Shown here: positions 7,115 to 40,575 of the stretch, in pieces
How the letters are laid out: the number at the start of each line of letters is the position of its first letter
Numbering within the stretch: position 1 is the stretch's first letter
Source: Lactiplantibacillus pentosus
Lineage (GTDB): Bacteria; Bacillota; Bacilli; Lactobacillales; Lactobacillaceae
Direction: 5' to 3'
Length of the DNA stretch: 64,000 nucleotides
Assembly (NCBI RefSeq): GCF_003641185.1
Contig: NZ_CP032757.1
Location: 1,116,001 to 1,180,000, forward strand
Position numbers and translations under genes: made by a program
Notes under the pieces: model-generated
The model's database searches: none
Told to the model about the DNA's origin: nothing
Seen by the model: only the letters and a program-made list of their open reading frames with translations

Positions 7115-8180
7115 TGTGCCTATTGTTATTTAGTATTAAAGATGATTAAATCATCCCAGTTAGTTGGTTTGTTGTTCGTCAGCCGGTGCGTGTCTTAGTC
7201 CGACCTCCGGGGCTGGCTGACAACGCTGGAACAGGGCGGACATCGATTTGAACTCACGCAGAAGACCACTGCGCAATTTCAAATACGAGTCTTCTTCTAG
7301 CCCGGGAAATTCACCCGGACAAGAAGAATTTCGCCCTTGAGCATTGTCCGCCAGCCCCTCCAGTCGGGAACCCGCTCGAATGGCAGATGAACGGCCACCT
7401 ATCCGGGTGCAACTGACCACTGAATGTTAGGAAACAGGTCCTTTAGATAAACTCTTAATCAGCAATGACGCTGATTTGTGGCACGTAAATCCTGTGAAGA
7501 CGGTCTAAAAATTATTGATAAGTATTACTGGTAACTAGCTTTAAAATTTACCGATCATATTGCCTTTCATCTTGGATTCAAGGTTTGTAATCTCGGTCGA
7601 CTAGAAAAGACAACAATGCTCAGTGATGCTATTGGTTTATAATGTTCAAATACAAGTTAGGATAACTTAGTGAAAATCAGTAGCTCACCTTACAGTTTGA
7701 ATGCTCAAAATAACCGTATGTTAAGAATCAATGACCAATCCATCAAAAAGTTGGGCCCGCACATGTCTGCCTTTCGAATACCATCCCGGCTGGAAGGTAT
7801 TCGGGGCAAGGCCCAGTGATTCCCAGAGTGTGAGGTTCAGACGGGTTGGGACTGAGGATTAGCCTAGCTAGAACGTTAAGCGGCGAACTTCCGCTTGGCG
7901 TTCTGGCGTAGCTAACCGGAAGTCCCAGTCTGACCAGAACACGTTTCATCCATATCGCGGGCAACGTGAAAGACCAGTATTTAAGACGTGGGCTTCGGCT
8001 TAAATCTGTGTCCACTACGTTACGGCCATTGACTAGAATGCCTGGAAGCCGGACTAGGACGTAGCAATCACAGAAAGTTTACGGTAACTCGCACTGTTTC
8101 CAGCGGGTCTCAGCTGGTAGCTCTTGAACTTAAAAACTAGCATGATTTAATCATCTATAATGCCGAATAATAACAAGCGC
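7115..8180 (+). repeat. Structured TIR element, copy 1 (long-hairpin variant)
   Basis: A gene-free element of about 1.07 kb. The left end (TAGTATTAAAGATGATTAAATCAT, read in two parts at 7130-7154) and the right end (CATGATTTAATCAT at 8141-8154, with an AATAATAACAAGCGC tail) are inverted repeats around ATGATTTAATCAT. Left module: GGGGCTGGCTGACAACGC (about 7208) closes with GCATTGTCCGCCAGCCCC (about 7341), enclosing a TTTGAA/TTCAAA hairpin and a TTCTTCT/AGAAGAA plus CCCGGG/CCCGG hairpin. The right module (about 7755-8060) has the same plan in inverted orientation. An AT-rich spacer separates the modules. Unlike copies 2-5, its right module carries a hairpin of over 100 nt at about 7830-7937. 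No ORF is shared between copies. Confidence 0.85.
7830..7937. other. Extended hairpin specific to copy 1
   Basis: A strong nested hairpin stands where the other copies have a hairpin of about 40 nt. The innermost stem GAACGTTAAGCGG (7871-7883) pairs with CCGCTTGGCGTTC (7891-7903) over 13 bp including two G-T wobbles. Outside it, GGTTCAGAC and TTGGGACT pair with AGTCCCA and GTCTGACC at 7921-7935. Confidence 0.75.
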
Positions 8181-8218
8181 AACGCGTGTAGCGAATGATA
8201 AGGTGATGTGAGTGAATA

Positions 8219-8458
8219 ATGATGGATCAATTTCCAAATTTTAAGCTATTTATCGATAAATACTTACCATGGCTGGCCGTGATTGGTTTTGTTGTGACGG
8301 TTAGTGCTAATGGTAATGTCTGGCTGTATTTTATGGCAGTGCTGATTGTATTCGTGGTGGTCGCAATTATTGACTTACTATTCAAATATTGGAACCACGC
8401 CAAAATTTTAGGCATCATGATTGTCCTTTTAGTGCTTGGATTATGGTTGAATCGCTAA
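8219..8458 (+). CDS. Small three-helix membrane protein, unknown function
   Basis: 79 residues with three hydrophobic segments (about residues 15-31, 33-53 and 61-76) and a short polar loop FKYWNHAK between the last two. A weak AAGGTGA ribosome site lies about 12 nt upstream, and two adjacent ATGs (8219, 8222) could start it. I do not recognise a family. It stands alone just after repeat element copy 1 and before the fum promoter region. Confidence 0.6.
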   Translation: MMDQFPNFKLFIDKYLPWLAVIGFVVTVSANGNVWLYFMAVLIVFVVVAIIDLLFKYWNHAKILGIMIVLLVLGLWLNR

Positions 8459-8911
8459 GATTGGTGTTAGGTGGGCATATTCAGACTGTCTTTGTCAAAA
8501 ACATCTCGGCTAATTGCGATTAGTAGTAGGGGGTGCTTTTTGTCTTGGTTTGCGATGCCTCTTTTTTTGACATGGTTCGGTCATGCAGTCAGAAGCGCTG
8601 TTGCTCAGCCGATGTGATTTCTTGTCGATTTTGGACTATGAAAAGGGTAAGAAAGTGCCGATTACAATTAAAATTAATCAACAGAGATAAATCGCAACAT
8701 GTGAAAAAATAAACATTTTTATCGTGAACGCGATTGTTGCAAGTTGTAGATGACAAACCACTGCCACATCAACCTCATAACTAAAACTTATAACTAAATC
8801 GATGTTTGACTATAGTCTTCTGGAGGCGCTAAACTTAATTTATAAATTGAATGTTATTTTTTTCACACATTTAGTAAGCGCTTACCAACACATTAATTGG
8901 AGGTTATTAAC
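8459..8911. other. Intergenic region with fum promoter candidate
   Basis: About 450 bp without a gene. A possible fum promoter is TTGACT (8806-8811), an 18-nt spacer and TAAACT (8830-8835). Downstream of it lies the cre-like palindrome listed separately. The first 300 bp are AT-rich and show nothing I can assign. Confidence 0.4.
8873..8886. promoter_or_regulatory. Candidate CcpA cre site upstream of fum
   Basis: AGTAAGCGCTTACC contains the perfect 12-bp palindrome GTAAGCGCTTAC and fits the cre consensus with its central CG. It lies about 26 nt before the fum start and downstream of the likely promoter, a position where CcpA would block transcription. Confidence 0.65.
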
Positions 8912-10294
8912 ATGACAGAATATCGTGTAGAATCAGATACTTTAGGCGAAGTTAAAATTCCAGCCACCGCGCTGTGGGGGGCCCAGACTGAACGGAGTCG
9001 CCATAATTTCCCAACTGGTACGAAGATGCCATTAGAAATTATCCGGGCACTCTTGCAAATCAAACGGGCCGCTGCCATTGCGAACAAGGAAGTTGAAGCA
9101 ATGACCGCCGAAAAGGCTGATTTGATCGTAGCCGCCATTGATAAATTGTTGGCGTTAGACGATGAAGACTTACGGAAGGACTTTCCATTAGTTGTTTATC
9201 AAACTGGTTCAGGGACTCAAACCAACATGAACGTGAACGAAGTTGTGGCCCATATGGCCGGCAAACTCAACCCAGACGTTGAAATTTTACCAAATGATGA
9301 CGTTAACCATGGTCAAAGTTCGAACGACATTTTCCCAACGGCTATGAACATCACAGCTGCCGTGGCTGTCGATAAATTGATTGCGGCTGCCGAACACTTA
9401 TTAGATGAATTAAAAGCTAAACAAAAGAAGTACTGGCGCGTTGTTAAGATTGGCCGGACCCATTTACAAGACGCGACGCCATTAACATTTGGCCAAGAAG
9501 TCAGTGGCTGGGCAAGTGCCATCGAACATGACATTGCTTACTTGAAGCAATTGAACCCAACCTTGGGAGAGCTGGCCATGGGTGGTACGGCTGTCGGAAC
9601 TGGACTGAATGCGGCGCCACATTTTGCTGAAAACATTGCCGCTGCCATGAGCAAACTGTATGGCATTGAATTTACGGCTGACTCCAATAAGTTCTATGGC
9701 TTGGCTCATCACTCTGGTTTGAACGTGGTCCACGGTGCCATCAAGACGTTAGCGGCTGATTTGATGAAGATCGCCAACGACGTGCGGTTCCTCGCTAGTG
9801 GCCCACGGGCTGGATATGACGAATTGAACATTCCAGCTAACGAACCAGGTTCATCGATCATGCCTGGGAAGGTCAACCCAACTCAGGCTGAAGCCATCAC
9901 CATGGCAGCAGTTCGGGTCATGGGGAATGACGTGGTCGTGGACTTAGCCTCTAGTCAAGGTAACTTTGAAATGAACGTCTACAAGACTGTGCTGATTGAC
10001 GCCTTCTTGGAATCCGCCGAATTATTAGCCGGTACGATCACTGGTTTTGCAGACCGGATGATTGCTGGTTTGACGATCAACGAAGACCGGATGGCTGAAT
10101 TAGTGGACCGTTCCTTGATGACTGTGACGGCGTTGTCACCACACATTGGTTACCATGACAGTGCGGTGATTGCCCAACAAGCTGAAAAAGCGGGCACGAC
10201 CTTGCGTGAAGCGGCAATCAAGTCTGGTAAAGTTACAGCGGAACAATTCGACGAATGGATGGTTCCAATTGATATGACCAACATTGATAATTAA
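8912..10294 (+). CDS. fum: Class II fumarate hydratase
   Basis: 460 residues, the usual length for iron-independent tetrameric class II fumarases. It interconverts malate and fumarate. It begins MTEYRVESDTLGEV with the early LWGAQTERS motif; GQSSNDIFPTAMN (substrate site), IGRTHLQDATPLT and the family signature GSSIMPGKVNPTQ are all present. The ATG at 8912 follows a GGAGG site; an in-frame TTG at 8897 is inside that ribosome site and is rejected. With the next gene it forms the reductive branch malate to fumarate to succinate. Confidence 0.95.
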   Translation: MTEYRVESDTLGEVKIPATALWGAQTERSRHNFPTGTKMPLEIIRALLQIKRAAAIANKEVEAMTAEKADLIVAAIDKLLALDDEDLRKDFPLVVYQTGSGTQTNMNVNEVVAHMAGKLNPDVEILPNDDVNHGQSSNDIFPTAMNITAAVAVDKLIAAAEHLLDELKAKQKKYWRVVKIGRTHLQDATPLTFGQEVSGWASAIEHDIAYLKQLNPTLGELAMGGTAVGTGLNAAPHFAENIAAAMSKLYGIEFTADSNKFYGLAHHSGLNVVHGAIKTLAADLMKIANDVRFLASGPRAGYDELNIPANEPGSSIMPGKVNPTQAEAITMAAVRVMGNDVVVDLASSQGNFEMNVYKTVLIDAFLESAELLAGTITGFADRMIAGLTINEDRMAELVDRSLMTVTALSPHIGYHDSAVIAQQAEKAGTTLREAAIKSGKVTAEQFDEWMVPIDMTNIDN

Positions 10295-10295
10295 G

Positions 10296-10399
10296 GTAAA
10301 CTAGTGATAGCGCTCCTGTAGCGAGTGGCGACTAGGCTGGCGACGGGTCATTGTTCCGCGAGTGGAATGGTGGCCCGTACCCGCTTATCGCTAGTTTAC
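10296..10399. other. Long branched hairpin between fum and frd
   Basis: GTAAACTAGTGATA (10296-10310) pairs with TATCGCTAGTTTAC (10386-10399). Within it sit a small CGCT/AGCG hairpin and an ACGGGTC/GGCCCGT hairpin with inner ATTGTTCC/GGAATGGT pairing. There is no T-run after it, so it is not a classical terminator. It may be a processing or mRNA-stability element between the two genes. Confidence 0.6.
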
Positions 10400-10495
10400 G
10401 GGGGGCGCAGACGAGTACCTGAAAAATAAACTTAATGAAAATGGATCGATCCACATCGGTAACGCGGTGTGTGATGAATTGAGAGGAGTAATTTG

Positions 10496-11884
10496 ATGGC
10501 TGACAAATTTACGTTTACGCCAACCGCTTTAGCGGATTTAAAAACAACCTATGACGTGGTCATTATTGGATCGGGTGGTGCTGGTTTGACCGCAGCGATT
10601 CAAGCCCACGAGCTTGGATTAAAACCGGTGATCTTAGAAAAAATGCCGAAAATCGGTGGCAACACGACGCGGGCTTCTTCGGGGATGAACGCCGCTGAAA
10701 CCAACGTCCAGTTGCATCACCACATCGTCGACAGTTTTGGCGACTTCTACGACGAAACGCTTAAAGGTGGCGGCAATCTGAATAACCAAGCACTGTTGAA
10801 GTTCTTCACGGAACACAGTGCGTTGGCCATCGACTGGTTAGCCGACCACGGCATCGAATTAGACGACTTAACGATTACGGGTGGGATGAGTGTCATGCGG
10901 ACCCACCGCCCAAGCTCGATGGCCCCAATCGGCGGCTTCTTGGTTACTGAGTTATTGAAACAAGTGGCGGCGGCTAAGTTACCATTGTTCACAGATATCA
11001 AAGTTGACCAATTGGTTCAGACGGATGGTAAAATTACCGGGGTCAAGGCAACCACCGCTAACGGTGCGGTAACCATCAATGCCGGTGCCGTCCTCTTAGC
11101 GACTGGTGGCTTCGGTGCCAACAAAGCCTTATTGGGCAAGTATCGCGATGACCTCAAAAATTATCAAACCACTAATCAACCGGGTGCGACCGGCGACGGT
11201 ATCTTACTAGCCGAAGCCGTTGGGGCCAAGGTGGTTGATATGGACCAAGTTCAAGTACATCCGACTGTGCAACAAGATACGGACCATGCTTACTTGATTG
11301 GTGAAGCCGTGCGTGGTGAAGGGGCCATTTTAGTCGACCAGCAAGGTAAGCGGTTTGTCAACGAATTGGACACGCGTAAGAACGTGACCGCCGCCATCGA
11401 CCAGCTCGGTGGTACCGGGGCTTATCTGATTTTTGACCGCGGCATTCGTGACCGGGTCAAGGCCGTTGAATTCTACGATCACATTGGTTTAGTCAAAACT
11501 GGTGCTGATTTGGCGGCATTAGCGACTGAAGCTGGTTTAGACGCTGATACGTTGACCCAGACGGTTGCGGACTGGAATCAAGCTGTTGCTAACCATGCGG
11601 ATACTGCCTTCAAGCGGACAACTGGGATGGATCGTGACATTGCCAAAGGCCCATTCTATGCGATTCACATCGCACCGGCTGTCCATTACACCATGGGTGG
11701 CGTTGGCATCAACCCAGCGACCCAAGTTCTGGACAAACAGGACCAACCAATCAACGGCTTATTTGCAGCCGGTGAAGTCGTTGGCGGCTTGCACGGCAAT
11801 AACCGGATTGGCGGTAACTCGATTGCCGAAACGGTCATCTTCGGTCGTCAAGCTGGACAACAGATGTTCAAATATTTACAGTAA
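10496..11884 (+). CDS. Soluble fumarate reductase flavoprotein
   Basis: 462 residues. The N-terminal FAD-binding Rossmann motif VVIIGSGGAGLTAAI is followed by EKMPKIGGNTTRASSGMNA. The fumarate reductase residues are all visible: GEAVRGEGAILV with the catalytic Arg region and NELDTR, the His in VHYTMGGVGINP, and the Arg in GNNRIGGNSIAE. There is no heme domain, FMN domain or secretion signal, so it is the short cytoplasmic form, expected to reduce fumarate to succinate as an electron sink. The start is the ATG after GAGAGGAGT. It follows fum directly, which supports this substrate over urocanate or other enoates. The common symbol frdC is used in lactobacilli but is not certain here. Confidence 0.85.
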   Translation: MADKFTFTPTALADLKTTYDVVIIGSGGAGLTAAIQAHELGLKPVILEKMPKIGGNTTRASSGMNAAETNVQLHHHIVDSFGDFYDETLKGGGNLNNQALLKFFTEHSALAIDWLADHGIELDDLTITGGMSVMRTHRPSSMAPIGGFLVTELLKQVAAAKLPLFTDIKVDQLVQTDGKITGVKATTANGAVTINAGAVLLATGGFGANKALLGKYRDDLKNYQTTNQPGATGDGILLAEAVGAKVVDMDQVQVHPTVQQDTDHAYLIGEAVRGEGAILVDQQGKRFVNELDTRKNVTAAIDQLGGTGAYLIFDRGIRDRVKAVEFYDHIGLVKTGADLAALATEAGLDADTLTQTVADWNQAVANHADTAFKRTTGMDRDIAKGPFYAIHIAPAVHYTMGGVGINPATQVLDKQDQPINGLFAAGEVVGGLHGNNRIGGNSIAETVIFGRQAGQQMFKYLQ

Positions 11885-11923
11885 TTTCGTCAGCGGTCGT
11901 TGTGCGCTGAGCGGATAAATTAA

Positions 11924-11968
11924 GGTTGCTTTGAGAATTCAGTAATGGATTGTCAGGGCAACTTTTTT
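11924..11968 (+). terminator. Terminator after fumarate reductase
   Basis: GTTGCTTTGA (11925-11934) pairs over 10 bp, with G-T wobbles, with TCAGGGCAAC (11953-11962), followed directly by six T. Confidence 0.75.
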
Positions 11969-12043
11969 GTGTTGGAATTGATGACTGATCAAGCTCAAAA
12001 TACAGCCCCAGATATCCTGTTAGTCATCCGGTAATCGCGCTAA

Positions 12044-12164
12044 TCTGGACGCTAAAACCGGTTAACAAGAAAATATCGATTTGGATTCACCCAGCCACTA
12101 GGGCAAGTTTACGCCAACTTGCACGGCTTCTGGCGGTCTTGAGATGTCGGCTTTAGCGTCAGGA
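12044..12164. other. Nested inverted repeat upstream of citX
   Basis: An outer stem TCTGGACGCTAAAACC (12044-12059) faces GGCTTTAGCGTCAGGA (12149-12164). Inside is a perfect 7-bp hairpin, GCAAGTT/AACTTGC (12103-12122). It has no T-run and no ORF. It resembles the large elements in style but I cannot align it to them. Confidence 0.5.
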
Positions 12165-12273
12165 TTTGAATAACAGGCAATATGACAAAATTCCCCCAAT
12201 TCGGATAAAATCGGTTTCAAAATTCTGCATTTTCAGTTAAGCTGAGTGTATAAGTATTTATAATAGGAAGAAA

Positions 12274-12819
12274 GTGACAAGTATGGCGAGTATTTTTACG
12301 AGCGGAAAACCGCAGTCAATTACGGATATGTTGGCGGCAAGGGACCAGCGCGTGGCCTTTCAACAGGAACTGACGACTGCTCATCCGAAGTCGTCGATTG
12401 CGGCGATCAAGCTCAATATTCCGGGGCCAATCAAGAATAATGATGCGTTGCGGCGGCTGTTTTTAGCCGGTGTTCAGCGGTTTGAGGACCAGCTGGCGGA
12501 TTATACGGTGGCGGCGGACTGGAATCATCCTGCGGGAAATGAACGCTTTTTGATTTTGCCACTAGATTTTGCGACGAGTAAGCGCGCGGCAGTAGCGTTT
12601 GAAGAGCAGGATTCGCTCGGACGATTGTACGATATTGATATTTTACAAACGGGTTCGCAACGTGCACTGTCGCGGACTGATTTGGGATTACCAAAACGGC
12701 GGTGCTTGTTGTGTGGGCGTGACGCCAAGGATTGCGCGCGGTCACGGCGACATTCAGTGGCGGACTTGCAAGCAAAAATTACGGCGATGTATGACGCAGA
12801 ATTCGGTGATCGCGTATGA
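12274..12819 (+). CDS. citX: Apo-citrate lyase phosphoribosyl-dephospho-CoA transferase CitX
   Basis: About 181 residues. It transfers the triphosphoribosyl-dephospho-CoA group to the serine of CitD, making holo-citrate lyase. Family marks are the NIPGPIKN motif at about residues 48-55 and the C-terminal run GRLYDIDIL, LGLPKRRCLLCG, RDAKDCARSRRHS. The start is either GTG at 12274 (5 nt after AGGA) or ATG at 12283 (14 nt after it). It is 5.3 kb from citCDEF, beyond repeat copy 1 and the fum and reductase genes, and its stop overlaps the next LysR start (ATGA). No citG is seen in the window, so the precursor synthase must lie elsewhere. Confidence 0.9.
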   Translation: MTSMASIFTSGKPQSITDMLAARDQRVAFQQELTTAHPKSSIAAIKLNIPGPIKNNDALRRLFLAGVQRFEDQLADYTVAADWNHPAGNERFLILPLDFATSKRAAVAFEEQDSLGRLYDIDILQTGSQRALSRTDLGLPKRRCLLCGRDAKDCARSRRHSVADLQAKITAMYDAEFGDRV

Positions 12820-13697
12820 ATACACGGGATCTAGATTATTTTCGAGCACTGGTCGATTGTCAGAATTATACGATGGTTGCGCGTCAATTCGCCGTTTCAC
12901 AACCGGCAGTGACGCAGGCGATTCACCGGTTGGAGAAAGAATTTGCGGTCAAGTTGGTGATTCAAGACCGCCATCATCAACAGACGAATATCACGCGGGC
13001 GGGCCATCTACTGTATAAGAACGCCCAACAAATTCAAGCGAGTTTGCGCTTGGCCCATCAAGAAATTGATAGCGCTCAGCAAGCGGAGATTCGGTTTGGT
13101 CTACCGCCGATTATCGGGACGTTGTATTTCCCACAGATCGCTGAAAAATTGCTACAAAACGGGTTGTTACAGCAGTTGAAAATTACCGAGACGGGCTCGG
13201 ACGAATTACTGCACAAACTGGTCAAAGGTGAAATCAATATTGCGTTATTGGGATCGTATCTGCCATTTGATTTGCCGACCGTACACGCGGTAAAGTTAGG
13301 GGCGCGACCTTTCAGCATCATTGTCAGTCCGCAAAACAGCTTGGCGACGCAGACAAGTATTGGTTTCAAAGATCTAGGACAAGCACAGTTTATCGGCCTG
13401 GATGGTAAATACGTTCATCCGCAAGCCTTTCAAGCCTACTGTGATTTTGCCGGGGTTCATCCGGAAGTCATTTATCGCACGCCTGATATTTCGTGGGTCA
13501 AAGCGCTGGTCAAAGCCAACCTCGGCATCAGCATGCTAGTCCGCGACGTCGTGAAACCAGATGATGGGGTGGTGTGCCTCGACATTGAGGACCAATTACC
13601 CGTCAGCTTCAACATTTCGGTCGTGACTCGCGCCGGCTACTTACCGACTGATGATGAACAACGCTTTATTGACCAACTGTTGAAAATGACTGTCTAA
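12816..13697 (+). CDS. LysR-family transcriptional regulator
   Basis: 293 residues. An N-terminal winged helix-turn-helix (NYTMVARQFAVSQPAVTQAIHRLEKEF) is followed by a periplasmic-binding-like effector domain. The start overlaps the citX stop (ATGA), so the two are translationally coupled, which is unusual because LysR genes are mostly divergent from their targets. It resembles the second LysR protein at 14.8 kb (both open MNT.DL.YF and share LGLPPII or FGLPPII), suggesting paralogues tied to organic acid genes. Targets could be citX, fum and the reductase, or mleS; this is inference. Confidence 0.88.
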   Translation: MNTRDLDYFRALVDCQNYTMVARQFAVSQPAVTQAIHRLEKEFAVKLVIQDRHHQQTNITRAGHLLYKNAQQIQASLRLAHQEIDSAQQAEIRFGLPPIIGTLYFPQIAEKLLQNGLLQQLKITETGSDELLHKLVKGEINIALLGSYLPFDLPTVHAVKLGARPFSIIVSPQNSLATQTSIGFKDLGQAQFIGLDGKYVHPQAFQAYCDFAGVHPEVIYRTPDISWVKALVKANLGISMLVRDVVKPDDGVVCLDIEDQLPVSFNISVVTRAGYLPTDDEQRFIDQLLKMTV

Positions 13698-13783
13698 TGG
13701 TTAGTTGTAATTACGTCTTGCGCGACTATACGTGAGACAATCATTATGGATCAACGAAAATGACTGATTATTCGGATAACACC

Positions 13784-13826: not shown

Positions 13827-13852
13827 GTGCAGGCGTGCTTTAAATCCGCGTT

Positions 13853-14822
13853 GCGCTAGTTATTCTTTAGCATTAAAGATGATTAAGTTATGCCAGTGGT
13901 TGGCTTACTGTTCGTCAGCCGATGCGCGCCTTAGTCCGACTTCCGGGGCCGGCTGACAATTGCTGGAACGTAAGCCGACATCGATTTGAACTCACGCAGA
14001 AACCCACTGCGCAATTTCAAATACGAGTCTTATTCTAAGCCGGAAGAAAATCACTTCCGACTAAGAATAATTTGGCTACTGAGCATTGTCAGCCAGCCCC
14101 TACAGTCGGGAAGCCGCTCAAATGGCGGATGAACGGCCACCTAGCTTGGCACAATTGATCATTGAATATTTATTGACTGGCTCCTTCAGATAAATACTTA
14201 ATCGGTATCGATGATGACTGATGGCATTTAATCACTGAGAAGATCACCTGAATATTGTTCACTCATCTCAATGCCACAAATTTCAGTGACCACCACTCGT
14301 CTTGAAATTAGTTGACAAGATTTCTTTCGCCTATAATTCAGGAGTTTGTTGTCTCGGGTAACTAGAGAAAATTCTGACAACTGCAGTGAAGTCGCTTGTC
14401 TGACAGCATGAGTAAGAAACTTTAGCTATCATTAGAGATCAGACTGACAGTTGAATGCCAAAATAACTGTGTACCAATGAATCAATGATTAATTCAACAA
14501 AATGTTGAGTTCGCAAATGTCTGCCTTTCGAATACAATCCCGACTGGAAGGCATTCTGGGCAAGGCCAAGTGGTGAAGTTTCACTTAGCAAGCGTTTTTG
14601 GCTTGGTTAGTGAAAGACCAGTATTTAAGACGTGGGTTATCGGCTTAAATCTGTGTCCACCACGTTCCGGCCATTGCCCAGAATGCCTGGAAGCCGGTGT
14701 AGGACGTCGCCACCACAGAAAGTTTACGGTAACTCGCACTGTTTCCAGCGGGTCTCAGCTGGTAGCACTTGAATTCATAAAATGGCATGATTTAATCATA
14801 ATTCATGATAAACTAATGCGCA
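13853..14822 (+). repeat. Structured TIR element, copy 2
   Basis: About 0.97 kb, gene-free, between two convergent LysR genes. The left end reads GCGCTAGTTATTCTTTAGCA then TTAAAGATGATTAAG; the right end has CATGATTTAATCAT at 14786-14799. Left module (about 13915-14130): closing stem GGGGCCGGCTGACAA against TTGTCAGCCAGCCCC, inner hairpins TTTGAA/TTCAAA and TTATTCT/AGAATAA with CGGAAG/CTTCCG. Right module (about 14515-14790, inverted): GGCATTCTGGGCAAGGCC against GGCCATTGCCCAGAATGCC, with a TTTCACT/AGTGAAA inner hairpin. Read inward from each end, the two modules align with each other (for example AAATACgaGTCTT and AAATACtgGTCTT). Confidence 0.85.
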
Positions 14823-14845
14823 CAATGCGTTTCAAATACAACAAC

Positions 14846-18788: not shown

Positions 18789-18807
18789 TCCAAACTAGAT
18801 TTACTGT

Positions 18808-18840: not shown

Positions 18841-18865
18841 GTGGGATACACATTGTGTTGGTTAA

Positions 18866-19824
18866 CTCGTCATGGATTATGATTGAATCATGTCATTTAA
18901 TGGATTCCTGTTCGTCAGCCGATGCGCGCCTTAGTCCGACTTCCGGGGCCGGCTGACAACGCTGGAACAGGGCGGACATCGATTTGAACTCACGCAGAAA
19001 ACCACTGCGCAATTTCAAATACGAGTCTTATTCTAAGCCGGAAGAAGACCACTTCCAGCTAAGAATAATTTGGCTACTGAGCATTGTCAGCCGGCCCCTA
19101 CAGTCGGGAAGCCGCTCGAATGGCGAATGAACGGCCACCTATCTAGGTGCAATTGACCATTGAATATTTAGTGATTGGACCCCTCAGGCAAAAGTTTATT
19201 CGGTACGGATGATGACTGATGGCATTAATTACTGAGAAGATCATCTGAATACTATTCACTCATCTCAATGCCACAAATTTCAAGGACAACTAGTCTTGAA
19301 ATTGGTCGATAAAGTTGCCCTCGTTTAGAATTCAAAATTTTGTTATCTTAGACGGTTAGAGAAGATTTTGACAAGCAAGTTCAGTGAAGTTGTCAGTAAT
19401 CTTAAAACATGGCTAAGAAAGTTTAGTTGTTTCAAGAAGGTAGTCTGACTGTTGAATGTCGAAATCACATTTTGTTAAGAATCAACGACTAGCTCATCAA
19501 AAGATTGGGTCCGCACATGTCTGCCTTTCGAATAATATCCCGGCTGGAAGGTATTCTGGGCAAGGCCCAGTGGTGAAATTTCACTTATCAAGCGTTTTTG
19601 GCTTGGTTAGTGAAAGACCAGTATTTAAGACGTGGGTTGTCGGCTTAAATCTGTGTCCACCACGTTACGGCCATTGACCAGAATGCCTGGAAGCCGGTCT
19701 AGGACGTCGCCAAAACGGCAAATTTACGCTAATTCGCACTGTTTCCAGCGGTTCTCAGCTGGCAGCTTTTGAACTTGGAAAATAGCATGATTTAATCATC
19801 TTTAATGCTAAATAATAACTAGCA
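18866..19824 (+). repeat. Structured TIR element, copy 3
   Basis: About 0.96 kb, gene-free, between mleP and an amino acid permease. The left end is TCATGGATTATGATTGAATC (the variant end type); the right end is CATGATTTAATCAT (19787-19800) then CTTTAATGCTAAATAATAAC. The left module has a perfect 15-bp closing stem: GGGGCCGGCTGACAA (18945-18959) against TTGTCAGCCGGCCCC (19084-19098). Inside are a TTTGAA/TTCAAA plus GCAG/CTGC hairpin and a TTATTCT/AGAATAA hairpin. In the right module GGTATTCTGGGCAAGGCC (19550-19567) faces GGCCATTGACCAGAATGCC (19669-19687) and encloses TTTCACT/AGTGAAA with CAAGC/GCTTG. A short in-frame stretch from 19456 is not a gene. Confidence 0.85.
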
Positions 19825-19915
19825 CCATGGGTAGTAGTAGCTGAATTATTAAGCAAAGCGTGAGATTGAAATTAGCAAATCTTATGAACAATTAATATAT
19901 TTGTTTAAAGTAACT

Positions 19916-34165: not shown

Positions 34166-34200
34166 GACGGGTTTGGCTATAAATATCAGTCCAATGACGT

Positions 34201-35160
34201 GTGCTAGTTAGTCTTTAGCATTAAAGATGATTAAATCATGTTATTTTCTAAGTTCAAGTGCTACCAGCTGAGACCCGCTGGAAACAGTGCGAGTTACCGT
34301 AAACTTTCTGTTGTAGCCGCGTCCTATGTCGGCTTCCAGGCATTTCTGACAACGCTGGAACGCGATGGACACAGATTTAAGCCGACAAATCACGTCTTAA
34401 ATACTGGTCTTCCACTAACCAAGCAAAAAACGCTTGCCAAGTGGAATTTCATCGCTGAGCATTGTCAGAAACACCTTCCAGCCTGGATGGTATTCGAAAG
34501 GCGGACATGTGCGGGCCCAACCTTTTGTTGAATTAGTCGTTGGTTCCTTGATACATGGTCATTTTGATATTCAACTGTCAGACTAGTTTCTAATGATAGC
34601 TAAGCTTCCTAACCCATGTTTTAATTTTTCAAATCAGCAGTTTCACTGGATTTGTCAAAACTTTCCTTAGTCGTTTGAGATAGAAAGGTTTCAAATTATA
34701 AACGAAGGTAATTTTATCGACCAAATTCAAGACTAATGTCCATTGAATCTTGCGGATAAAATTCAAATGATTTTTTCAGTGATTAAGTGTGATAAAGCAT
34801 TATTGAGGCCAATTAAAAGTTTGCTTGAAGGACCAGTTACTTAATATTCAGTGGTCAGTTGTACCCAAATAGGTGGCCGTTCATCTGCCATTCGAGCGGG
34901 TTCCCGACTGTAGGGGCTGGCTGACAATGCTCAAGGGCGAAATTCTTCTTGTCCGGGTGGGGTTCCCGGGCTAGAAGAAGACTCGTATTTGAAATTGCGC
35001 AGTGGGTTTCTGCGTGAGTTCAAATCGATGTCCGCCCTGTTCCAGCGTTGTCAGCCGGCCCCGGAAGTCGGAATCGGACGCGCATCGGCTGACGAACAGT
35101 AATCCGAACTAACTGGCATGATTTAATCATGATCCATCACAAGAAAACCAGCAGAATGCG
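34201..35160 (-). repeat. Structured TIR element, copy 4 (inverted)
   Basis: About 0.96 kb, opposite in orientation to copies 1-3, between two convergent genes. The plus-strand left end is GTGCTAGTTAGTCTTTAGCA then TTAAAGATGATTAAATCATG; the right end is CATGATTTAATCATGATCC at 35118-35136. The first module (34275-34500) closes with TTTCTGACAACGC against GCATTGTCAGAAA, where copies 2 and 3 use ATTCTGGGCAAGGC-type arms. Its inner hairpin pairs TTCCACT/AGTGGAA where copies 2 and 3 use TTTCACT/AGTGAAA. The second module (about 34910-35090) has TTCTTCT/AGAAGAA and CCCGGG/CCCGG like copy 1. Short frames inside it are not genes. Confidence 0.85.
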
Positions 35161-35174
35161 TGTGAATTCAAATT

Positions 35175-35237
35175 AAAAAGCCAGCTCACAAGCACATGAT
35201 CAGCGAATTCTGACCGCGTCCTTGTGAGCTGGTTTTT
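35175..35237. terminator. Bidirectional terminator
   Basis: AAAAAGCCAGCTCACAAG pairs with CTTGTGAGCTGGTTTTT around a 28-nt loop, just after repeat copy 4 and before the end of the oxidoreductase gene. Confidence 0.85.
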
Positions 35238-35251
35238 AAGCACGAACAACG

Positions 35252-36226
35252 TTATTTTTCAAAGGGGTAGCGGAAGTCCCATTGGGTGCGTGCGGCGGTC
35301 ATGATTGCCATGACGTCGGTCGTTTTCGCCAGACTGGTATTCCGTAATTCGCCGGCGACCATTTTCTGCATGTCAGCGATTTCGTAATTCATTGCGTTGG
35401 TACTATCGCCGGCAGTAATCGTCTCCGTGTGGCCTTCATTGTCGGTAAAGGTGGCGGTGTCGGCGCGTGGATAGGTGTCGACGGTGAAATAGCCGTTTTC
35501 GTACGCAACGATGCCACGTTTAGGCATCTTGGCCCGAAACGTCAACGCGACCGTTGCCAATTCATCGTTGGCGGTCCGCAACGTGATGGTCGAGGATTCG
35601 TCGACACCACTGCTGAAACGGTGCATCGTGGTTCCCGTTAAGTAAGGTGTGGCGGTCAAGAATTCTTCGACAAAAGCGAGGGCGTAGACGCCAATATCAA
35701 GCAGCGCACCACCCGCAAGGTCCGGATTGAAGAACCGATTCGTCGGGTCAGGTTCTTTGAAGCTCCCAAAACTAGCCTGGACCATTTTCAGATCACCAAG
35801 GTGCCGTTCGGCTGCGAAGTCGTGTAACCGTTCATAGAGCGGCATGTGGTAAAGCGTCATGGCTTCGGCCAAGATGAGGTGGTTGCTGGCAGCGACTTCC
35901 TTAGCAATTGCGAGTTGGGTGCTCGACATCGTAATCGCTTTTTCACTCAGCACGTGTTTGCCAGCCCGTAATGCCGGCAAAATGGTGTCGATATGGTAGT
36001 TGTGTGGCGTTGCCACGTAGACGATGTCGACCTGGTCATCGGCAAGCAGGTCATCTAAATTCCCATAAGCCTTTGGAATGTCATGTTCGGCAGCAAAAGC
36101 ACTTGCTTTGGCTTGTGAACGTGAGCAGACGGCGTAAATTTCGCCATCGGGTTGATCAAAATATTTAACAAAGCTATGCGCAATGTTACCCAGGCCAACG
36201 ATGGCCCAACGATAAGTTTTCGACAT
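35252..36226 (-). CDS. Gfo/Idh/MocA-family oxidoreductase
   Basis: 324 residues from the ATG at 36226, which follows AGGAGGA; the frame extends to 36307 without a ribosome site. The N-terminal NAD(P) fold WAIVGLGNIAHSFV is followed by DIVYVATPHNYH and the family motif LSEKAITM with the conserved Lys (EK.). GGALLDIGVYALAF is the usual C-terminal domain signature. The family acts on sugars, inositols or dihydrodiols; the substrate is not known. It is transcribed alone and divergent from the glucosaminidase gene. Confidence 0.88.
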   Translation of the reverse strand: MSKTYRWAIVGLGNIAHSFVKYFDQPDGEIYAVCSRSQAKASAFAAEHDIPKAYGNLDDLLADDQVDIVYVATPHNYHIDTILPALRAGKHVLSEKAITMSSTQLAIAKEVAASNHLILAEAMTLYHMPLYERLHDFAAERHLGDLKMVQASFGSFKEPDPTNRFFNPDLAGGALLDIGVYALAFVEEFLTATPYLTGTTMHRFSSGVDESSTITLRTANDELATVALTFRAKMPKRGIVAYENGYFTVDTYPRADTATFTDNEGHTETITAGDSTNAMNYEIADMQKMVAGELRNTSLAKTTDVMAIMTAARTQWDFRYPFEK

Positions 36227-36366
36227 TGAAAAGTTCCTCCTAGGATTAATCGAATGTGAACACTTACATTTTAGCAAAAAAATAAGAAATTCGCGCTTGA
36301 TAATCATGTAAAATTAAGCCAAAAGTCGGTAAAATGGGTGTAATTAGTCAGAAGGGAGCATTGGGG

Positions 36367-37005
36367 ATGGCGAAAAAGCGACGACGGCCACGTAAACGGG
36401 CGCGTTCACAACTATTCGTGAAAAAGGGCCGTCTTCAATGGCTCAATATTTTAGTCGTGCTTATGGCAATCGTCGGCATGGTCTGGTTCATTCAACACAA
36501 TTGGACTTCAGCGACCTCGCATTCAACGACCGATACGCTCCCAACGACGTCACACGCGGCCTTTATCAAGAAGCTCGCGCCGGCTGCGCAACAGCTGGAC
36601 CAGAAGTATCACGTGCTTGCGAGTATCACGTTGAGTCAAGCAATTCTGGAATCGGATTGGGGCAAGAGCACGAACGCTACGGAAAATAATAACTTGTTTG
36701 GCGTCAAATCGGATTCGGGACGGTTGATGACGACCCAGGAGTATTATGATGGTGCCTATCATACGGTCAAACGGCGCTTTGCAGTCTACGATAGTTGGCA
36801 CGCCTCACTGGTCGATCATGCCAAAAAGTTAGCGTTTGGCACGACTTGGGATTCTCAGCACTACGCCGCGGTCATTAAGGCCACGGATTACAAGGTCGCA
36901 GCCAAGGCATTACAGACCGCTGGCTACGCGACCGACCCAAGTTATGCACAAAAATTAATTAATATTATTCAAAAATACGACTTACAACGGTATGATAGAG
37001 AGTAA
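36367..37005 (+). CDS. GH73 glucosaminidase (cell wall hydrolase)
   Basis: 212 residues. A very basic N-terminus (KKRRRPRKRARSQ) precedes one membrane helix (about residues 28-47), making a type II anchored or signal-anchored protein. The mannosyl-glycoprotein endo-beta-N-acetylglucosaminidase domain follows: ITLSQAILESDWGKS with catalytic Glu near residue 95, NNLFGVKS, and the C-terminal YATDPSYAQKLINII motif. It should cut peptidoglycan glycan chains. The start at 36367 has GAAGGGAG 9 nt upstream; an upstream ATG at 36334 precedes that site. No cell wall binding repeats are present. Confidence 0.88.
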   Translation: MAKKRRRPRKRARSQLFVKKGRLQWLNILVVLMAIVGMVWFIQHNWTSATSHSTTDTLPTTSHAAFIKKLAPAAQQLDQKYHVLASITLSQAILESDWGKSTNATENNNLFGVKSDSGRLMTTQEYYDGAYHTVKRRFAVYDSWHASLVDHAKKLAFGTTWDSQHYAAVIKATDYKVAAKALQTAGYATDPSYAQKLINIIQKYDLQRYDRE

Positions 37006-37094
37006 ATAAATCAATAAACGGCGTTGTCAAAATTCGTGACTAACATTAGTGGCGAACAATGTGTGGCTTGTTGATTTCACTCTAGGAGGTAACT

Positions 37095-37682
37095 ATGCGA
37101 GAACTTGAAGAACGCATTTTGAAGGATGGCCGGGTACTTCCCGGTGAAGTGTTGAAGGTGGATGGCTTTTTGAATCACCAAGTCGATCCAGATTTGATGT
37201 TTGCGATGGGGACTGAATTTGCTCACCGTTTTCAAGATGCGGGCGTCACCAAGATTTTGACCGTTGAATCATCCGGTATCGCGCCGGCTGTCATGGCTGG
37301 TTTAGCGATGCACGTACCGGTCGTGTTTGCACGGAAACACAAATCCGTCACGCTGATCGACGATTTATACACGGCTGAAGTTTATTCATATACGAAGAAG
37401 ACGTCCAACCATATCTCGATTGCCAAAAAGTTCTTACAGCCCGGTGAAAAGGTCCTCTTGATCGATGACTTCTTAGCGAATGGTCAAGCCGTTCAAGGCA
37501 TGTTTGAAATTTGTGACCAAGCTCAAGTGACGATTGCAGGCGTGGGAATCGTCATTGAAAAAGTCTTCCAGACGGGTCACCAGATGATCGTCGACCGCGG
37601 TGTGCGGCTAGAATCATTGGCTCAGATTACGTCCTTTGACGGGGACCGCGTTCACTTTGCTTCAGAAGACGTGGATGCGTAA
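37095..37682 (+). CDS. xpt: Xanthine phosphoribosyltransferase
   Basis: 195 residues, the standard length of Xpt. It starts MRELEERILKDGRVLPGEVLKVD, a family N-terminus, and has the PRPP-binding motif VLLIDDFLANGQAV. It salvages xanthine to XMP. AGGAGG precedes the ATG. The 90-nt upstream gap holds no purine riboswitch that I can recognise; a CGAACAAT string near 37053 resembles a PurBox core but stands without a properly oriented partner. It is followed closely by the DUF2179-type gene. Confidence 0.93.
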   Translation: MRELEERILKDGRVLPGEVLKVDGFLNHQVDPDLMFAMGTEFAHRFQDAGVTKILTVESSGIAPAVMAGLAMHVPVVFARKHKSVTLIDDLYTAEVYSYTKKTSNHISIAKKFLQPGEKVLLIDDFLANGQAVQGMFEICDQAQVTIAGVGIVIEKVFQTGHQMIVDRGVRLESLAQITSFDGDRVHFASEDVDA

Positions 37683-37709
37683 GTTTGAACTCAAAAAGTA
37701 GGGGGGACT

Positions 37710-38261
37710 ATGATGCAAATTGACGTTGGGATGCTGGTCCTCATTTTTGTCATCAACTTCGTCTACATTACGTTAAACACGGTGCGGTTTTTGCTGGTGA
37801 TGCGCGGCTATCGGTACTTCGCGGCCTTCGCCAGTGTCATTGAAATTACGATTTACGTCTTAGGGCTGTCACTGGTGCTTGACCGCTTGCATAATCCAAT
37901 CAATCTGATCGTCTACGCGCTCGGCTACGGCGTCGGTGTGTACGTCGGGATGGTGATTGAAGACCACCTGGCCCTGGGTTACACGATGATTTCAGTCATT
38001 TTGCCGGACCCGAAGTCAAGTTTGCCCGGCATCTTGCGGGAAAATGGCTTTGGCGTCACCCAGCACGCGGCGTATGGTCTGGAAGGTGAACGGCTGGCGC
38101 TGGAGATTTTAGCCCCACGCAAGAACGAACGGCGCCTCTATGATTTGATCAAGGACGCGGCGCCCAGTGCATTTGTCATCGCTTACGAACCGCGCTATAT
38201 CTCTGGTGGCTTTTGGCTCAAACGGGTCAAACGACGCAATGCGCGGCGGAAAAAACAGTGA
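37710..38261 (+). CDS. UPF0316/DUF2179-type membrane protein
   Basis: 183 residues with three N-terminal membrane helices (about residues 7-30, 39-58 and 66-86) and a cytoplasmic DUF2179-like domain (LPGILRENGFGVTQHAAYG, then ILAPRKNERRLYDLI). The NTVRFLLVMRGYRYFA loop after the first helix is typical of UPF0316. The C-terminus is highly basic (RRNARRKKQ). The function is not established. AGGGGGG precedes two ATGs (37710, 37713). It is probably co-transcribed with xpt. Confidence 0.85.
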   Translation: MMQIDVGMLVLIFVINFVYITLNTVRFLLVMRGYRYFAAFASVIEITIYVLGLSLVLDRLHNPINLIVYALGYGVGVYVGMVIEDHLALGYTMISVILPDPKSSLPGILRENGFGVTQHAAYGLEGERLALEILAPRKNERRLYDLIKDAAPSAFVIAYEPRYISGGFWLKRVKRRNARRKKQ

Positions 38262-38371
38262 TAAACTTGCAACCAGGTGCACCAGCAAGTATGATTGTTA
38301 CAGGTTAATCAGCGTTAAGTATGAATCAATAATCAAATTATTATTTTAAGCATAGGAAAGTAGGGACTGAA

Positions 38372-39550
38372 GTGGACAACTCGATTTTAAACCCAGGTGG
38401 TACGCTTGGCATCATTGGAAGTAGTACTAATGGTGTTGGATTAGTAATTGCCGCGCGTAATGCTGGCATCAATGTCGGGGTATACGGCGATAACGAAAAT
38501 ACAGAGACCATGGAACTGGCAGATTTTCGCGTTGTCGGAGCCCTCAATGACCAACAACAGTTACAAAACTTTGCGGAACGTTGCGATATGGTGACTTATG
38601 AATCAGAAACCATTGACGCGTCCGTCATTAATTTCTTGGCGGCCCATACCCGGGTTCCTCAGGGTGCGGATGCGCTTGAAATCACGCAGGACCGCTCTCT
38701 GGAACGGGCGTTCTTTAGTCAACTTAACTTGAACGTGGCGCCGTCTGCCACCATCGTCAGTCTGGACGATGTTTATCAATCGATTGGTTCGATTGGCTAC
38801 CCAAGTATTTTGAAGCCGATTCAAAAGGGACTCGGTCAGAATCGCCAGCTGGTCATTAAGACGCAGACGGATATCGTTAAGGCTGCCGACTTGCTCGACT
38901 GGGGAACTTACCTGTTAGAATCCTTGATTCCCTATGATAAGGAACTCTCAGTCTTTGGCGCTAAGAGCGGTGACACGACCGCCTTTTTCCCAACGGTCGA
39001 GAATCGTTATCAGAATCATGAACTGGTCGCCTCAATCGTGCCGGCTCAGATCGATTCAGCCGTTAACGATGAAATGTTGCGGATTACTAAAGAAATCAGT
39101 GACAACTTGAACTACACTGGTGTCTTCGAAGTGGCTTTCTTCTTGACGAAGAGCGGCAATTTATATGTCAAACGGGTCGTCCCTGCCATGCACCAAGCGG
39201 GTTACGTCTTCGAACGGGCCACGAACATCAGTATGGCTGAACAACACTTACGGGCGATCGCTGGCTTACCATTGATGCCGGTCAAGCAACTAATGCCGGT
39301 GGTCGCAGCTTACTTCACGCCGGCCCAAGAAAGTGGCATTCGGACACAGTGGCAGATCAAGACTAACTGGTTCTTCAATTTCTATCACCGGACACTGCTA
39401 CAAGCGCACCGTGCACCAGTTGCTGGTCACGTGCTCGTTGAAGCACCGAGTGTCAAAGAAGCCCTCGAACAGATTGAGGACACCAGTATCTGGCGCTTCG
39501 GTCAATCCACGCCAGCTGAGACTGAAACTGATACCGAAGACGATGTTTAA
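38372..39550 (+). CDS. Divergent PurK-like ATP-grasp protein
   Basis: 392 residues from GTG after AGTAGGGA. The order of domains follows PurK (N5-carboxyaminoimidazole ribonucleotide synthase): N-terminal fold TLGIIGSS, then QGADALEITQDRSLERAFF, the ATP-grasp core YPSILKPIQKGLGQNRQ and YLLESLIPYDKELSV, and ENRYQNHELVASIVPA. Two key sites differ. The usual GGGQLG loop is GSSTNGVG, and the late NE(I/V)APRPHNSGH metal and substrate site is replaced by LYVKRVVPAMHQAGYV. A normal PurK reaction is therefore doubtful. It stands alone, not in a pur operon. It may be a paralogue with another substrate. Confidence 0.75.
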   Translation: MDNSILNPGGTLGIIGSSTNGVGLVIAARNAGINVGVYGDNENTETMELADFRVVGALNDQQQLQNFAERCDMVTYESETIDASVINFLAAHTRVPQGADALEITQDRSLERAFFSQLNLNVAPSATIVSLDDVYQSIGSIGYPSILKPIQKGLGQNRQLVIKTQTDIVKAADLLDWGTYLLESLIPYDKELSVFGAKSGDTTAFFPTVENRYQNHELVASIVPAQIDSAVNDEMLRITKEISDNLNYTGVFEVAFFLTKSGNLYVKRVVPAMHQAGYVFERATNISMAEQHLRAIAGLPLMPVKQLMPVVAAYFTPAQESGIRTQWQIKTNWFFNFYHRTLLQAHRAPVAGHVLVEAPSVKEALEQIEDTSIWRFGQSTPAETETDTEDDV

Positions 39551-39617
39551 TTGCAGTCATCAATAATCAATAATTTCAAACTAGTTGTCGGCAGTGCTGG
39601 CTAACTAGATCATACAT

Positions 39618-39657
39618 AGTCGTTTCAAGATGTGATCTTCTTGGGGCGGCTATTTTT
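39618..39657 (+). terminator. Terminator after the PurK-like gene
   Basis: AGTCGTTTCAAGA pairs, with several G-T wobbles, with TCTTGGGGCGGCT, followed by ATTTTTG. It lies immediately before repeat copy 5. Confidence 0.65.
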
Positions 39658-39659
39658 GT

Positions 39660-40575
39660 GACGCATTCAGGTCACGATCGCCGGCTGAGGACCGCTGGGA
39701 ACAGTGTAAATCTGCAGTGGTGGTGGCGTCCTACCGACTTCCGGGGCCGGCCGACAATTGCTGGAACGCAGCCGAACATCGATTTGAGCTCACGCAGAAA
39801 ATCACTGCGCAATTTCAAATTCGAGTCTTATTCTAAGTCGGAAGAAAGTCACTTTCGACTACGAATAATTTGGCTACTGAGCATTGTCCGGCGGTCCGGC
39901 CAGTTGGAAAAACGTTCGAATGGCAGATGAACGGCCACCAATCCTGGCGCAACTCAGCACTGAATAATTAAGAGACTGGGAACTTCAATCAAACTTTGAA
40001 GCAACGTCGAGGACGACTTCAAGCAGCTAAATACTGAGAAAGTTGTTTGAAGACTTATAACTAGTTTCAACGGAAATGGGTATAGTCATAAAGTTGACAA
40101 AAAAGAATTACCAAACGATTAGCCTTGAACACATCGTCATCTCAGTCAACTAAAAAAGCTCCGATAACGTTCAGTGATGATGATGGTGTCTAGAATGAAA
40201 ATATGGGTAAGATAGCATAGAAATTATCAAACGTCAGTCCTACAGTGGAATGGAAAAACAACGGTTTGCTAAGAACCAACGACCAGTCTATCCAAGGTTG
40301 AGTCCGCACATGTCTGCCTTTCGAATACCATCCCAGGATGGAAGGTGTTTCTGACAATGCACAGCGATGAAATTCCACTTAGCAAGCGTTTTTGGCTTGG
40401 TTAGTGGAAGACCAGCATTTAAGACGTGGGTTGTCGGCTTAAATCTGTGTCCATCGCGTTCCAGCGTTGTCAGAAATACCTGGAAGCCGGTATAGGACGG
40501 ACTAACTAAATAGATTTACGCTAACTTGCCTTACTTTCCAGCGGGCCATAGCTGGCGGTTTTGACTTTCGCAGCT
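39660..40575 (+). repeat. Structured element, copy 5 (decayed, terminal repeats lost)
   Basis: About 0.9 kb related to copies 1-4 but without recognisable terminal ATGATTTAATCAT palindromes. The left side opens with CCGGCTGAGGACCGCTGGG, which matches the outer part of a right module in reverse, and then passes into the left-module core (CTTCCGGGGCCGGCCGACAA). The right module keeps TTTCTGACAATGC against GCGTTGTCAGAAA and TTCCACT/AGTGGAA. The left module keeps TTATTCT/GAATAA and GTCGGAAG/CTTTCGAC. So it is a chimeric or rearranged copy with stems intact and ends eroded. Confidence 0.75.

What the first reader, a model, noticed from the sequence alone, without database searches (positions are those of the whole stretch)
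7115..40575. Five intergenic structured elements of about 1 kb with terminal inverted repeats and no coding capacity
Copies lie at 7115-8180, 13853-14822, 18866-19824, 34201-35160 (inverted) and 39660-40575. All five are between genes and none disrupts a recognisable gene; two are between convergent genes. Copies 1-4 end in inverted repeats with the 13-nt palindrome ATGATTTAATCAT or close variants. Each carries two stem-rich modules around an AT-rich spacer and no shared ORF. The layout fits a non-autonomous mobile element, a large noncoding RNA family, or both. I do not recognise it as a described family, though I cannot check.
Basis: seen in the sequence. Interest (0 to 1): 0.93.

Follow-up and report, generated by a model that had tools for sequence, protein, structure and literature searches.

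The report
Flipping noncoding elements with twin RNAs
This lactic acid bacterium's genome carries about a hundred copies of a one-kilobase noncoding mobile element whose middle is found flipped between related species and which holds two outward-pointing, RNA-like folded modules that the RNA library searched here does not list.

Summary
The five copies belong to a family with 91 places in hand in this genome, some partial, and 14 junction sites beyond them. Copies have ~50-bp terminal inverted repeats, and some have clear 6-8 bp target duplications, so they are transposon-type insertions.

New: at 15 of 32 loci shared with the nearest relative, Lactiplantibacillus EGD-AQ4, the interior is inverted between the same flanks, usually switching at a ~14-17 bp core. 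A second species pair shows 3 of 9.

Each window copy carries two inverted-homologous ~146-nt modules pointing outward, with a covarying branched fold: 30 of 42 pairs changed on both sides. Rfam has no match, yet the model matches 86 of 330 family genomes, 14 of 40 genera.

Best reading: a non-autonomous transposon with an interior flipped by a trans-acting recombinase, carrying twin structured RNAs and perhaps a one-sided outward promoter (41 of 47 ends against 1 of 49). Transposase, recombinase, transcription and function are unproven; the ten cleanest pairs show no selection on the modules.

The parts
7109..8187 (+). Copy 1, whole element; its 3' module has a longer apical part
   Evidence: repeat ends, inverted pair I19; five other copies have a similar-sized insert at the same place
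7142..7154 (.). left core palindrome of copy 1 (proposed inversion site)
   Evidence: site inferred from other copies
8142..8154 (.). right core palindrome of copy 1
7211..7361 (-). copy 1, 5' module (R1 fold, points outward)
   Evidence: R1 147.9 bits
7858..8041 (+). copy 1, 3' module, variant with insert
   Evidence: R1 53.8 bits
13846..14830 (+). Copy 2, whole element, between convergent genes; same orientation as in EGD-AQ4 but spacer diverged as if replaced
13947..14103 (-). copy 2, 5' module
   Evidence: R1 145.3 bits
14546..14686 (+). copy 2, 3' module
   Evidence: R1 150.3 bits
13879..13891 (.). left core of copy 2 (2 mismatches)
14787..14799 (.). right core palindrome of copy 2
18848..19832 (+). 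Copy 3, whole element; same orientation as its EGD-AQ4 orthologue
18947..19101 (-). copy 3, 5' module
   Evidence: R1 126.8 bits
19546..19686 (+). copy 3, 3' module
   Evidence: R1 150.9 bits
18879..18891 (.). left core of copy 3 (1 mismatch)
19769..19799 (+). copy 3, outward promoter-like junction: TTGAAC, 16 nt, TTTAAT inside the core at 19787-19799
   Evidence: G000:C1:1135769-1135799, 0 mismatches; not flagged by the stricter scan
34194..35161 (-). Copy 4, whole element; inverted relative to its EGD-AQ4 orthologue
   Evidence: L043 against L145
34340..34479 (-). copy 4, 3' module, here at the left
   Evidence: R1 146.4 bits
34910..35060 (+). copy 4, 5' module, here at the right
   Evidence: R1 143.8 bits
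34227..34239 (.). left core palindrome of copy 4
35118..35130 (.). right core palindrome of copy 4
39660..40575 (+). Copy 5, ends decayed, both modules recognisable
39745..39901 (-). copy 5, 5' module
   Evidence: R1 119.4 bits
40340..40479 (+). copy 5, 3' module
   Evidence: R1 143.5 bits

Best explanation
The five copies belong to a high-copy, non-autonomous, transposon-type element. Shown: ~50-bp terminal inverted repeats, target duplications of up to 8 bp at some copies, about a hundred places, plasmid copies, no coding capacity. Shown by comparing genomes: the interior lies in either orientation between unchanged flanks, and where it can be measured the switch maps to a ~14-17 bp core (TGATTAAATCATG(CCA)) in each repeat. 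Shown by covariation: the interior carries two copies of a ~146-nt branched nucleic-acid fold, set divergently (outward) around a fast-changing spacer. Inferred: outer repeat arms serve a transposase supplied in trans; the inner core is the site of a recombinase acting in trans (tyrosine type most likely) that flips the interior and may swap interiors between loci; the modules work as outward-running RNA. Inferred and weakest: a promoter-like pair (-35 at the 3'-module end, -10 inside the core) points outward from one end only, so each flip would hand an outward promoter to the other neighbouring gene.
For: Copies and ends. Target duplications: over 24 end pairs the best per-base match is 0.52, in the register of a 7-bp duplication, against at most 0.44 in 300 shuffles; 6 of the 24 share 6-8 identical bases next to the ends; a 249-bp deletion copy is bounded by an exact AAACCTAT. 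Inversion: 15 of 32 shared loci, 3 of 9 in G005/G003. Switch point: in the 10 of 15 inverted pairs that could be measured, outer arms stay with the flank in 9 and the interior swaps in 10 (alignments). L050 and L062 are inverted although one outer arm is lost. The longest identical run between the two ends of inverted copies is 5-20 bp, median 11, short for RecA-type recombination (recalled). Structure: 30 of 42 pairs with both-side changes; 95.5% of cells paired against 33-44% when slid; covariation score 0.562 against 0.218 in shuffles, 0 of 500 reaching it. Range: 86 of 330 genomes. Divergent pairs: 5 of 5 in the window; in 26 loci of other genomes, all 12 adjacent opposite-strand pairs are divergent, 7 in this genus and 5 in three other genera. 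Promoter-like -35 at 41 of 47 against 1 of 49 ends; junction motif 63 times in G000 and 44 in G016, controls 0.
Against: No autonomous partner was found, though ORFs were read in only 2 of 20 regions around unmatched ends. No recombinase is tied to the core. The best candidate, an orphan 183-aa tyrosine recombinase (L260), is beside an element in 2 of 10 genomes that have it; it is in G004, where R1 finds nothing, and lacking at 69% identity in 7 of 14 R1-positive genus genomes. L049, L076 and L085 are inverted although no core is recognisable at one end. Orientation was compared between assemblies of different species, not within one culture. In the ten cleanest pairs module cores change as fast as the spacer (140/3043 against 132/2538, P 0.32). 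G-T over A-C bias is clear only in the 3' module (50 to 15), weak in the 29-sequence set (25 to 14). No conserved promoter lies in the spacer. The junction is 9 of 12 to consensus and is not flagged by the stricter scans; its motif, drawn from G000, is found 5 and 2 times in G005 and G003 and in none of the other 17 genus genomes. Orientation towards neighbouring genes is random (14 against 12).
Confidence: 0.58

Rival explanations
1. Plain MITE-like repeats whose interiors flip and mix passively: homologous or inverted-repeat-mediated recombination and ectopic gene conversion among ~100 similar copies invert and swap interiors, without a dedicated recombinase or function.
For: Modules are often closer to non-orthologous copies than to their orthologue; 16 of 30 shared loci have spacers that differ by at least 0.18, as if replaced; placement resembles intergenic space (26 tandem, 13 convergent, 9 divergent of 48); clean pairs show no extra constraint on modules; inverted copies tend to have longer identical runs than same-orientation ones (median 11 against 8, P 0.13); three inverted loci lack a recognisable core at one end.
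Against: Identical runs between the two ends are at most 20 bp in inverted copies; in L055 and L086 the locus-specific spacer itself is inverted, and L062 is 668/695 identical in reverse, so donor conversion does not explain them; 15 of 32 loci differ in orientation while flanks diverged about 6%; the fold is kept across 14 genera.
Confidence: 0.36
2. The modules act as folded single-stranded DNA (recombination, replication or conjugation substrates, as attC sites do) rather than as RNA; covariation then reflects DNA hairpins.
For: Covariation does not tell RNA from single-stranded DNA; parts recur on plasmids, 22 of 26 predicted mobilizable; a plasmid copy has lost most of its 5' module between short repeats; no conserved spacer promoter was found.
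Against: The outward strand folds more strongly (-46.7 against -35.9) and G-T exceeds A-C in the 3' module (50 to 15), though single-stranded DNA also tolerates G-T.
Confidence: 0.2
3. A set of host regulatory RNA genes that merely look mobile.
For: High copy number and wide range of the fold; loci shared across species; over all pairs modules change less than the spacer in 21 of 28.
Against: Target duplications, terminal repeats and plasmid copies; spread over intergenic space without clear preference; no extra in-place conservation of modules in the ten cleanest pairs.
Confidence: 0.05

Closest known systems
MITEs and other non-autonomous TIR elements
   Same: Terminal inverted repeats, target duplications, no ORF, high copy, intergenic
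   Different: About 1 kb, conserved branched folds, interior found in both orientations at the same loci, partner transposase unknown
Invertible promoter switches flipped by small tyrosine recombinases (fim-type, Bacteroides Mpi-type; recalled)
   Same: Short inverted sites flank a segment found in both orientations; promoter-like signal at one end; small tyrosine recombinases exist in the genome, related to but far below the cut-off of the DNA-invertase families
   Different: Dozens of copies of one mobile element, ~1 kb, no recombinase tied to it, structured contents; promoter and recombinase unproven
Large structured RNAs linked to mobile DNA (GOLLD, ROOL, HEARO; recalled)
   Same: Large ornate noncoding structure, linked to mobile DNA
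   Different: No match at Rfam's curated scores; about 100 places per genome; paired divergent modules
Foldback elements such as Galileo (start of one abstract seen)
   Same: Long modular inverted arms; mixing among copies
   Different: Bacterial; arms hold a conserved fold; no transposase identified

Membership tests
MITE / non-autonomous DNA transposon | terminal inverted repeats | tested here: met
   decayed in some copies, such as window copy 5
MITE / non-autonomous DNA transposon | target site duplication | tested here: met
   6-8 identical bases in 6 of 24 copies with both ends, group signal above 300 shuffles; exact 8 bp
MITE / non-autonomous DNA transposon | no coding capacity | tested here: met
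MITE / non-autonomous DNA transposon | autonomous partner with the same ends | tested here: inconclusive
   20 regions with unmatched ends fetched, ORFs read in 2; plasmid search with one end gave 9 records, none inspected for a transposase
MITE / non-autonomous DNA transposon | small size (a few hundred bp) | tested here: not met
   64 near-full copies of 775-1116 nt with about 30 nt of flank; shorter deletion copies exist
Invertible DNA switch (inverton) | segment bounded by inverted sites, found in both orientations at one locus | tested here: met
   between species: 15 of 32 and 3 of 9
Invertible DNA switch (inverton) | both orientations within one population | not testable with these tools
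   no reads
Invertible DNA switch (inverton) | promoter inside the segment | tested here: inconclusive
   consensus-like pair at one end, 41 of 47 against 1 of 49; not flagged by stricter scans; no expression data
Invertible DNA switch (inverton) | site-specific recombinase | tested here: inconclusive
   candidates only
Rfam families (release 15) | match at the curated score | tested here: not met
   0 in the 64-kb window; around copy 3 three weak hits at E 0.28-4.4, all below the curated score
Functional structured RNA | covariation beyond controls | tested here: met
   further pair types alone were not above shuffles (74 of 500)
Functional structured RNA | transcription | not testable with these tools
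   no RNA data

The most novel reading that the evidence does not exclude
Lactobacillaceae genomes carry a previously unnamed class of mobile element: a transposon-type cassette with a built-in inversion site at each end and twin, outward-facing structured RNAs. One trans-acting recombinase could flip about a hundred loci and exchange interiors between loci, so each cell would carry its own combination of outward promoters and RNAs: a genome-wide, transposable phase-variation system.
Probability: 0.3. Interest if true: 0.95.

Novelty: new variant of a known kind. Interest (0 to 1): 0.85.

Why it matters
A covarying fold of ~146 positions that matches 86 of 330 sampled genomes of the family, 54 of them at all nine places scored, has no Rfam match here, so a large, high-copy nucleic-acid family in well-studied food and gut bacteria seems to be unnamed. 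If its host element also flips in cells, it would link transposition, DNA inversion and structured RNA in one unit and make up to a hundred switchable loci per genome. That bears directly on strain-to-strain variation in Lactiplantibacillus, and a few PCRs or long reads can test it.

Tried and rejected
Rejected or set aside: protein-coding element. Phage origin: no blastn match in the phage collection and none for one exact pattern in viral contigs, a narrow test, since that pattern found only EGD-AQ4 among genome contigs. IS256-type transposase (my reading of the protein) near a lone end-like site on the genome's second contig: its gene is bounded by different inverted repeats. Empty-site alignments for five EGD-AQ4 sites were too diverged to read; the duplications rest. 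The first rate table mixed inverted with same-orientation pairs and was redone. The all-pair excess of spacer over module change (module lower in 21 of 28 pairs for each module, P 0.0004 and 0.0003) was not taken as selection, because it is gone in the ten pairs that I picked for spacer divergence under 0.10. Direct inversion on plasmids: the one locus compared in two versions shows deletions, not inversion. The small recombinase L257 was set aside because it sits beside its own, different inverted repeat. Recombinase-to-element association across the genus is imperfect. Internal promoter for the modules: none conserved in the spacer; 15 hits cluster inside the 5' module. Ten paper searches gave no account of these elements that I could see; I saw listings and starts of abstracts, plus two passages of PMC2267715. 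The library holds open-licence papers only, so this is weak evidence that nothing is in print.
Full report
Setting. The window is G000:C1:1116001-1180000 of a 3.67-Mb genome. The nearest named relative met here is EGD-AQ4, filed as Lactiplantibacillus plantarum: all 74 stretches of a genome contigs pattern scan come from it, records very near the window's own being possibly left out, and G016 has contigs of the same lengths. The host is thus taken to be a Lactiplantibacillus; its species was not determined.

Copy number. Two own-genome searches gave 63 matches each, of which 52 and 56 rows were merged to 68 places; only 40 of 196 and 40 of 181 candidates had been scored. Window copy 1 was missed by both. 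Twenty regions around unmatched ends gave 22 more copies of 249 bp or longer. That makes 91 places in hand, some partial, 74.6 kb summed; 14 of 63 junction-motif sites lie outside them. The end pattern at up to 3 mismatches occurs 78 times forward and 77 reverse, against 10 and 14 for the reversed pattern.

Transposon anatomy. Of 69 copies then in hand, 64 near-full ones were aligned. Their ends read ACGCRTTGTGCTAGTTA..., then one of two outer-arm versions, then TGATTAAATCATGCCA, decayed in some. Among 24 copies with both ends recognisable (23 of G000 and one plasmid), flanking bases match by 0.52 at the best offset, the register of a 7-bp duplication, against at most 0.44 in 300 shuffles. Six of the 24 share 6-8 identical bases next to the ends: GTGTTAAT, TAATAAGA, AAAACTT, ACCGATC, GCTAGT and, on the plasmid, GTAACAT; the others show less or none. 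A 249-bp internally deleted copy is bounded by an exact AAACCTAT. Twenty-six plasmid records carry parts, 19 of Lactiplantibacillus and 7 of Ligilactobacillus, none covering 80% of the query in one place.

Inversion. Flanks of the 69 copies were compared with 83 EGD-AQ4 loci, some overlapping: 32 have both flanks matching one locus, at 82-99% identity. At 15 the interior aligns better in reverse, at 17 forward. In L055, L062 and L086 the reverse identity (94, 96, 92%) is close to that of the flanks, and in L055 and L086 the spacer is far closer to its orthologue than to any other EGD-AQ4 copy, so the interior itself turned over. Window copy 4 (L043) is inverted relative to EGD-AQ4; copies 2, 3 and 5 are not; copy 1 matched on one side only. 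In G005 against G003 (20 and 40 places fetched), 9 shared loci split 3 inverted to 6 same. Against G000 and EGD-AQ4 the two add 7 inverted and 7 same rows, some counting one locus twice. G005 lies in 2 contigs, so draft assembly alone is an unlikely cause; reads were not available.

Where it switches. In the inverted pairs the outer ~33 nt of the repeat generally stays with the host flank while what lies inward of GCCAnTT moves. Ten of 15 pairs could be measured: outer same-side above cross in 9, inner cross above same-side in 10. Five lacked a recognisable core in at least one of four ends, L049, L076 and L085 on the left in G000. Two inverted loci with a good core have lost an outer arm (L050, L062). 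I infer two functional parts: an outer arm for transposition and an inner core for inversion. Longest identical runs between the two ends are 5-20 bp in inverted copies (median 11) and 6-21 in the others (median 8; P 0.13).

Mixing among copies. Spacers differ by 40% at the median between copies, modules by 13-16%, and some spacers sit at different loci in the two genomes: the G000 spacer of L043 is closest to the EGD-AQ4 copy at the L041 locus (0.068). Sixteen of 30 shared loci have spacers at 0.18 divergence or more. Cassette exchange or gene conversion is therefore frequent.

The modules. The left module on the minus strand and the right module on the plus strand are homologous. An alignment of 29 modules from G000, EGD-AQ4 and relatives of the genus (2 of the 31 chosen were left out) gives 42 pairs, 30 with both-side changes; 95.5% of cells pair, against 33-44% when partners are slid, and 0 of 500 shuffles reach the covariation score. 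Part of this is the contrast between the two module types, so events are fewer than cells; further pair types were not above shuffles (74 of 500). Model R1 matches 86 of 330 family genomes, 14 of 40 genera, 54 of the 86 at all nine places scored, and ten places in the window. In 26 of the 30 loci brought (those of G000, G003, G005 and G016 left out), 12 hold adjacent opposite-strand modules, all divergent: 7 in this genus, 5 in three other genera; 12 hold one module and 2 hold two same-strand modules about 1.2 kb apart. No shared end sequence was seen around the pairs from other genomes. Rfam has no match at curated scores. Strand: on the plus strand G-T against A-C is 49 to 16 in the 3' module and 15 to 71 in the 5' module, resting on few columns; in a larger set 50 to 15 and 8 to 24, agreeing with outward strands; the 29-sequence set gives 25 to 14. 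This is suggestive only.

Promoter-like end. At 41 of 47 right ends a -35-like hexamer (38 at 16 nt) precedes TTTAAT within the core; at left ends 1 of 49, though TTTAAT-like sequence is there too (ends without a core at up to 3 mismatches left out). The inferred switch point lies between the two hexamers, so a flip would move the -35 to the other side. The pair is only 9 of 12 to consensus and escapes stricter scans. In 48 of 91 EGD-AQ4 elements with enough flank, contexts are 26 tandem, 13 convergent and 9 divergent, near the make-up of intergenic space, and orientation relative to tandem genes is 14 to 12, so no gene-level selection shows.

Selection. Over all pairs modules change less than the spacer (21 of 28 for each module), but in ten pairs picked for a little-diverged spacer, module cores changed at 140/3043 and spacer at 132/2538 (P 0.32). 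The fold is therefore kept at family level, perhaps because only working copies spread, rather than visibly at each locus. This speaks for a role in the element's own life as much as in the host's.

Recombinase. G000 holds 11 Phage_integrase and 2 Resolvase matches. Two chromosomal ones are small: L257 (200 aa) lies beside a Wzz-like gene (my reading, not searched) with its own 34-nt inverted repeat; L260 (183 aa) is an orphan beside an element. Relatives of L260 at 69% identity or more occur in 10 of 21 genus genomes, beside an element only in G000 and, as a fragment, in G016; G004 has one without R1 matches, and 7 of 14 R1-positive genus genomes have none. It is a candidate, no more.

Verdict. 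An uncommon and, as far as these searches reach, undescribed family: mobile, noncoding, inverted at many loci between species, with twin conserved folds. Mechanism of inversion, transcription and benefit remain open.

Noticed in passing
L257:1408-2367 (G000:C1 about 1218073-1219032): A 200-aa tyrosine recombinase beside a Wzz-like polysaccharide gene (my reading), with a 34-nt inverted repeat (85%) whose arms lie 141 nt apart in the gap between them: a possible separate invertible promoter of a polysaccharide locus.
   Followed up: partly
window 50713-51150: Four tandem copies of a ~102-nt repeat in a gap between two long ORFs.
   Followed up: no
window 7858-8041; L035, L039, L050, L053, L054: Six copies have about 150 nt in place of about 37 nt in the apical part of the 3' module; whether the inserts are alike was not tested.
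   Followed up: no
L251 against L017:2969-3780: The same plasmid insertion in two records differs by two internal deletions, one between short direct repeats that removes most of the 5' module.
   Followed up: partly
L311:1501-2389 (G010): Another species of the genus has three modules in one place, two in tandem and one divergent; hits ~327 nt apart on one strand recur in that genome.
   Followed up: no
G016 (EGD-AQ4) contig ends: Several draft contigs begin about 70-100 bases from a junction motif (C13, C14, C20, C31, C50), so these repeats seem to break the assembly.
   Followed up: no
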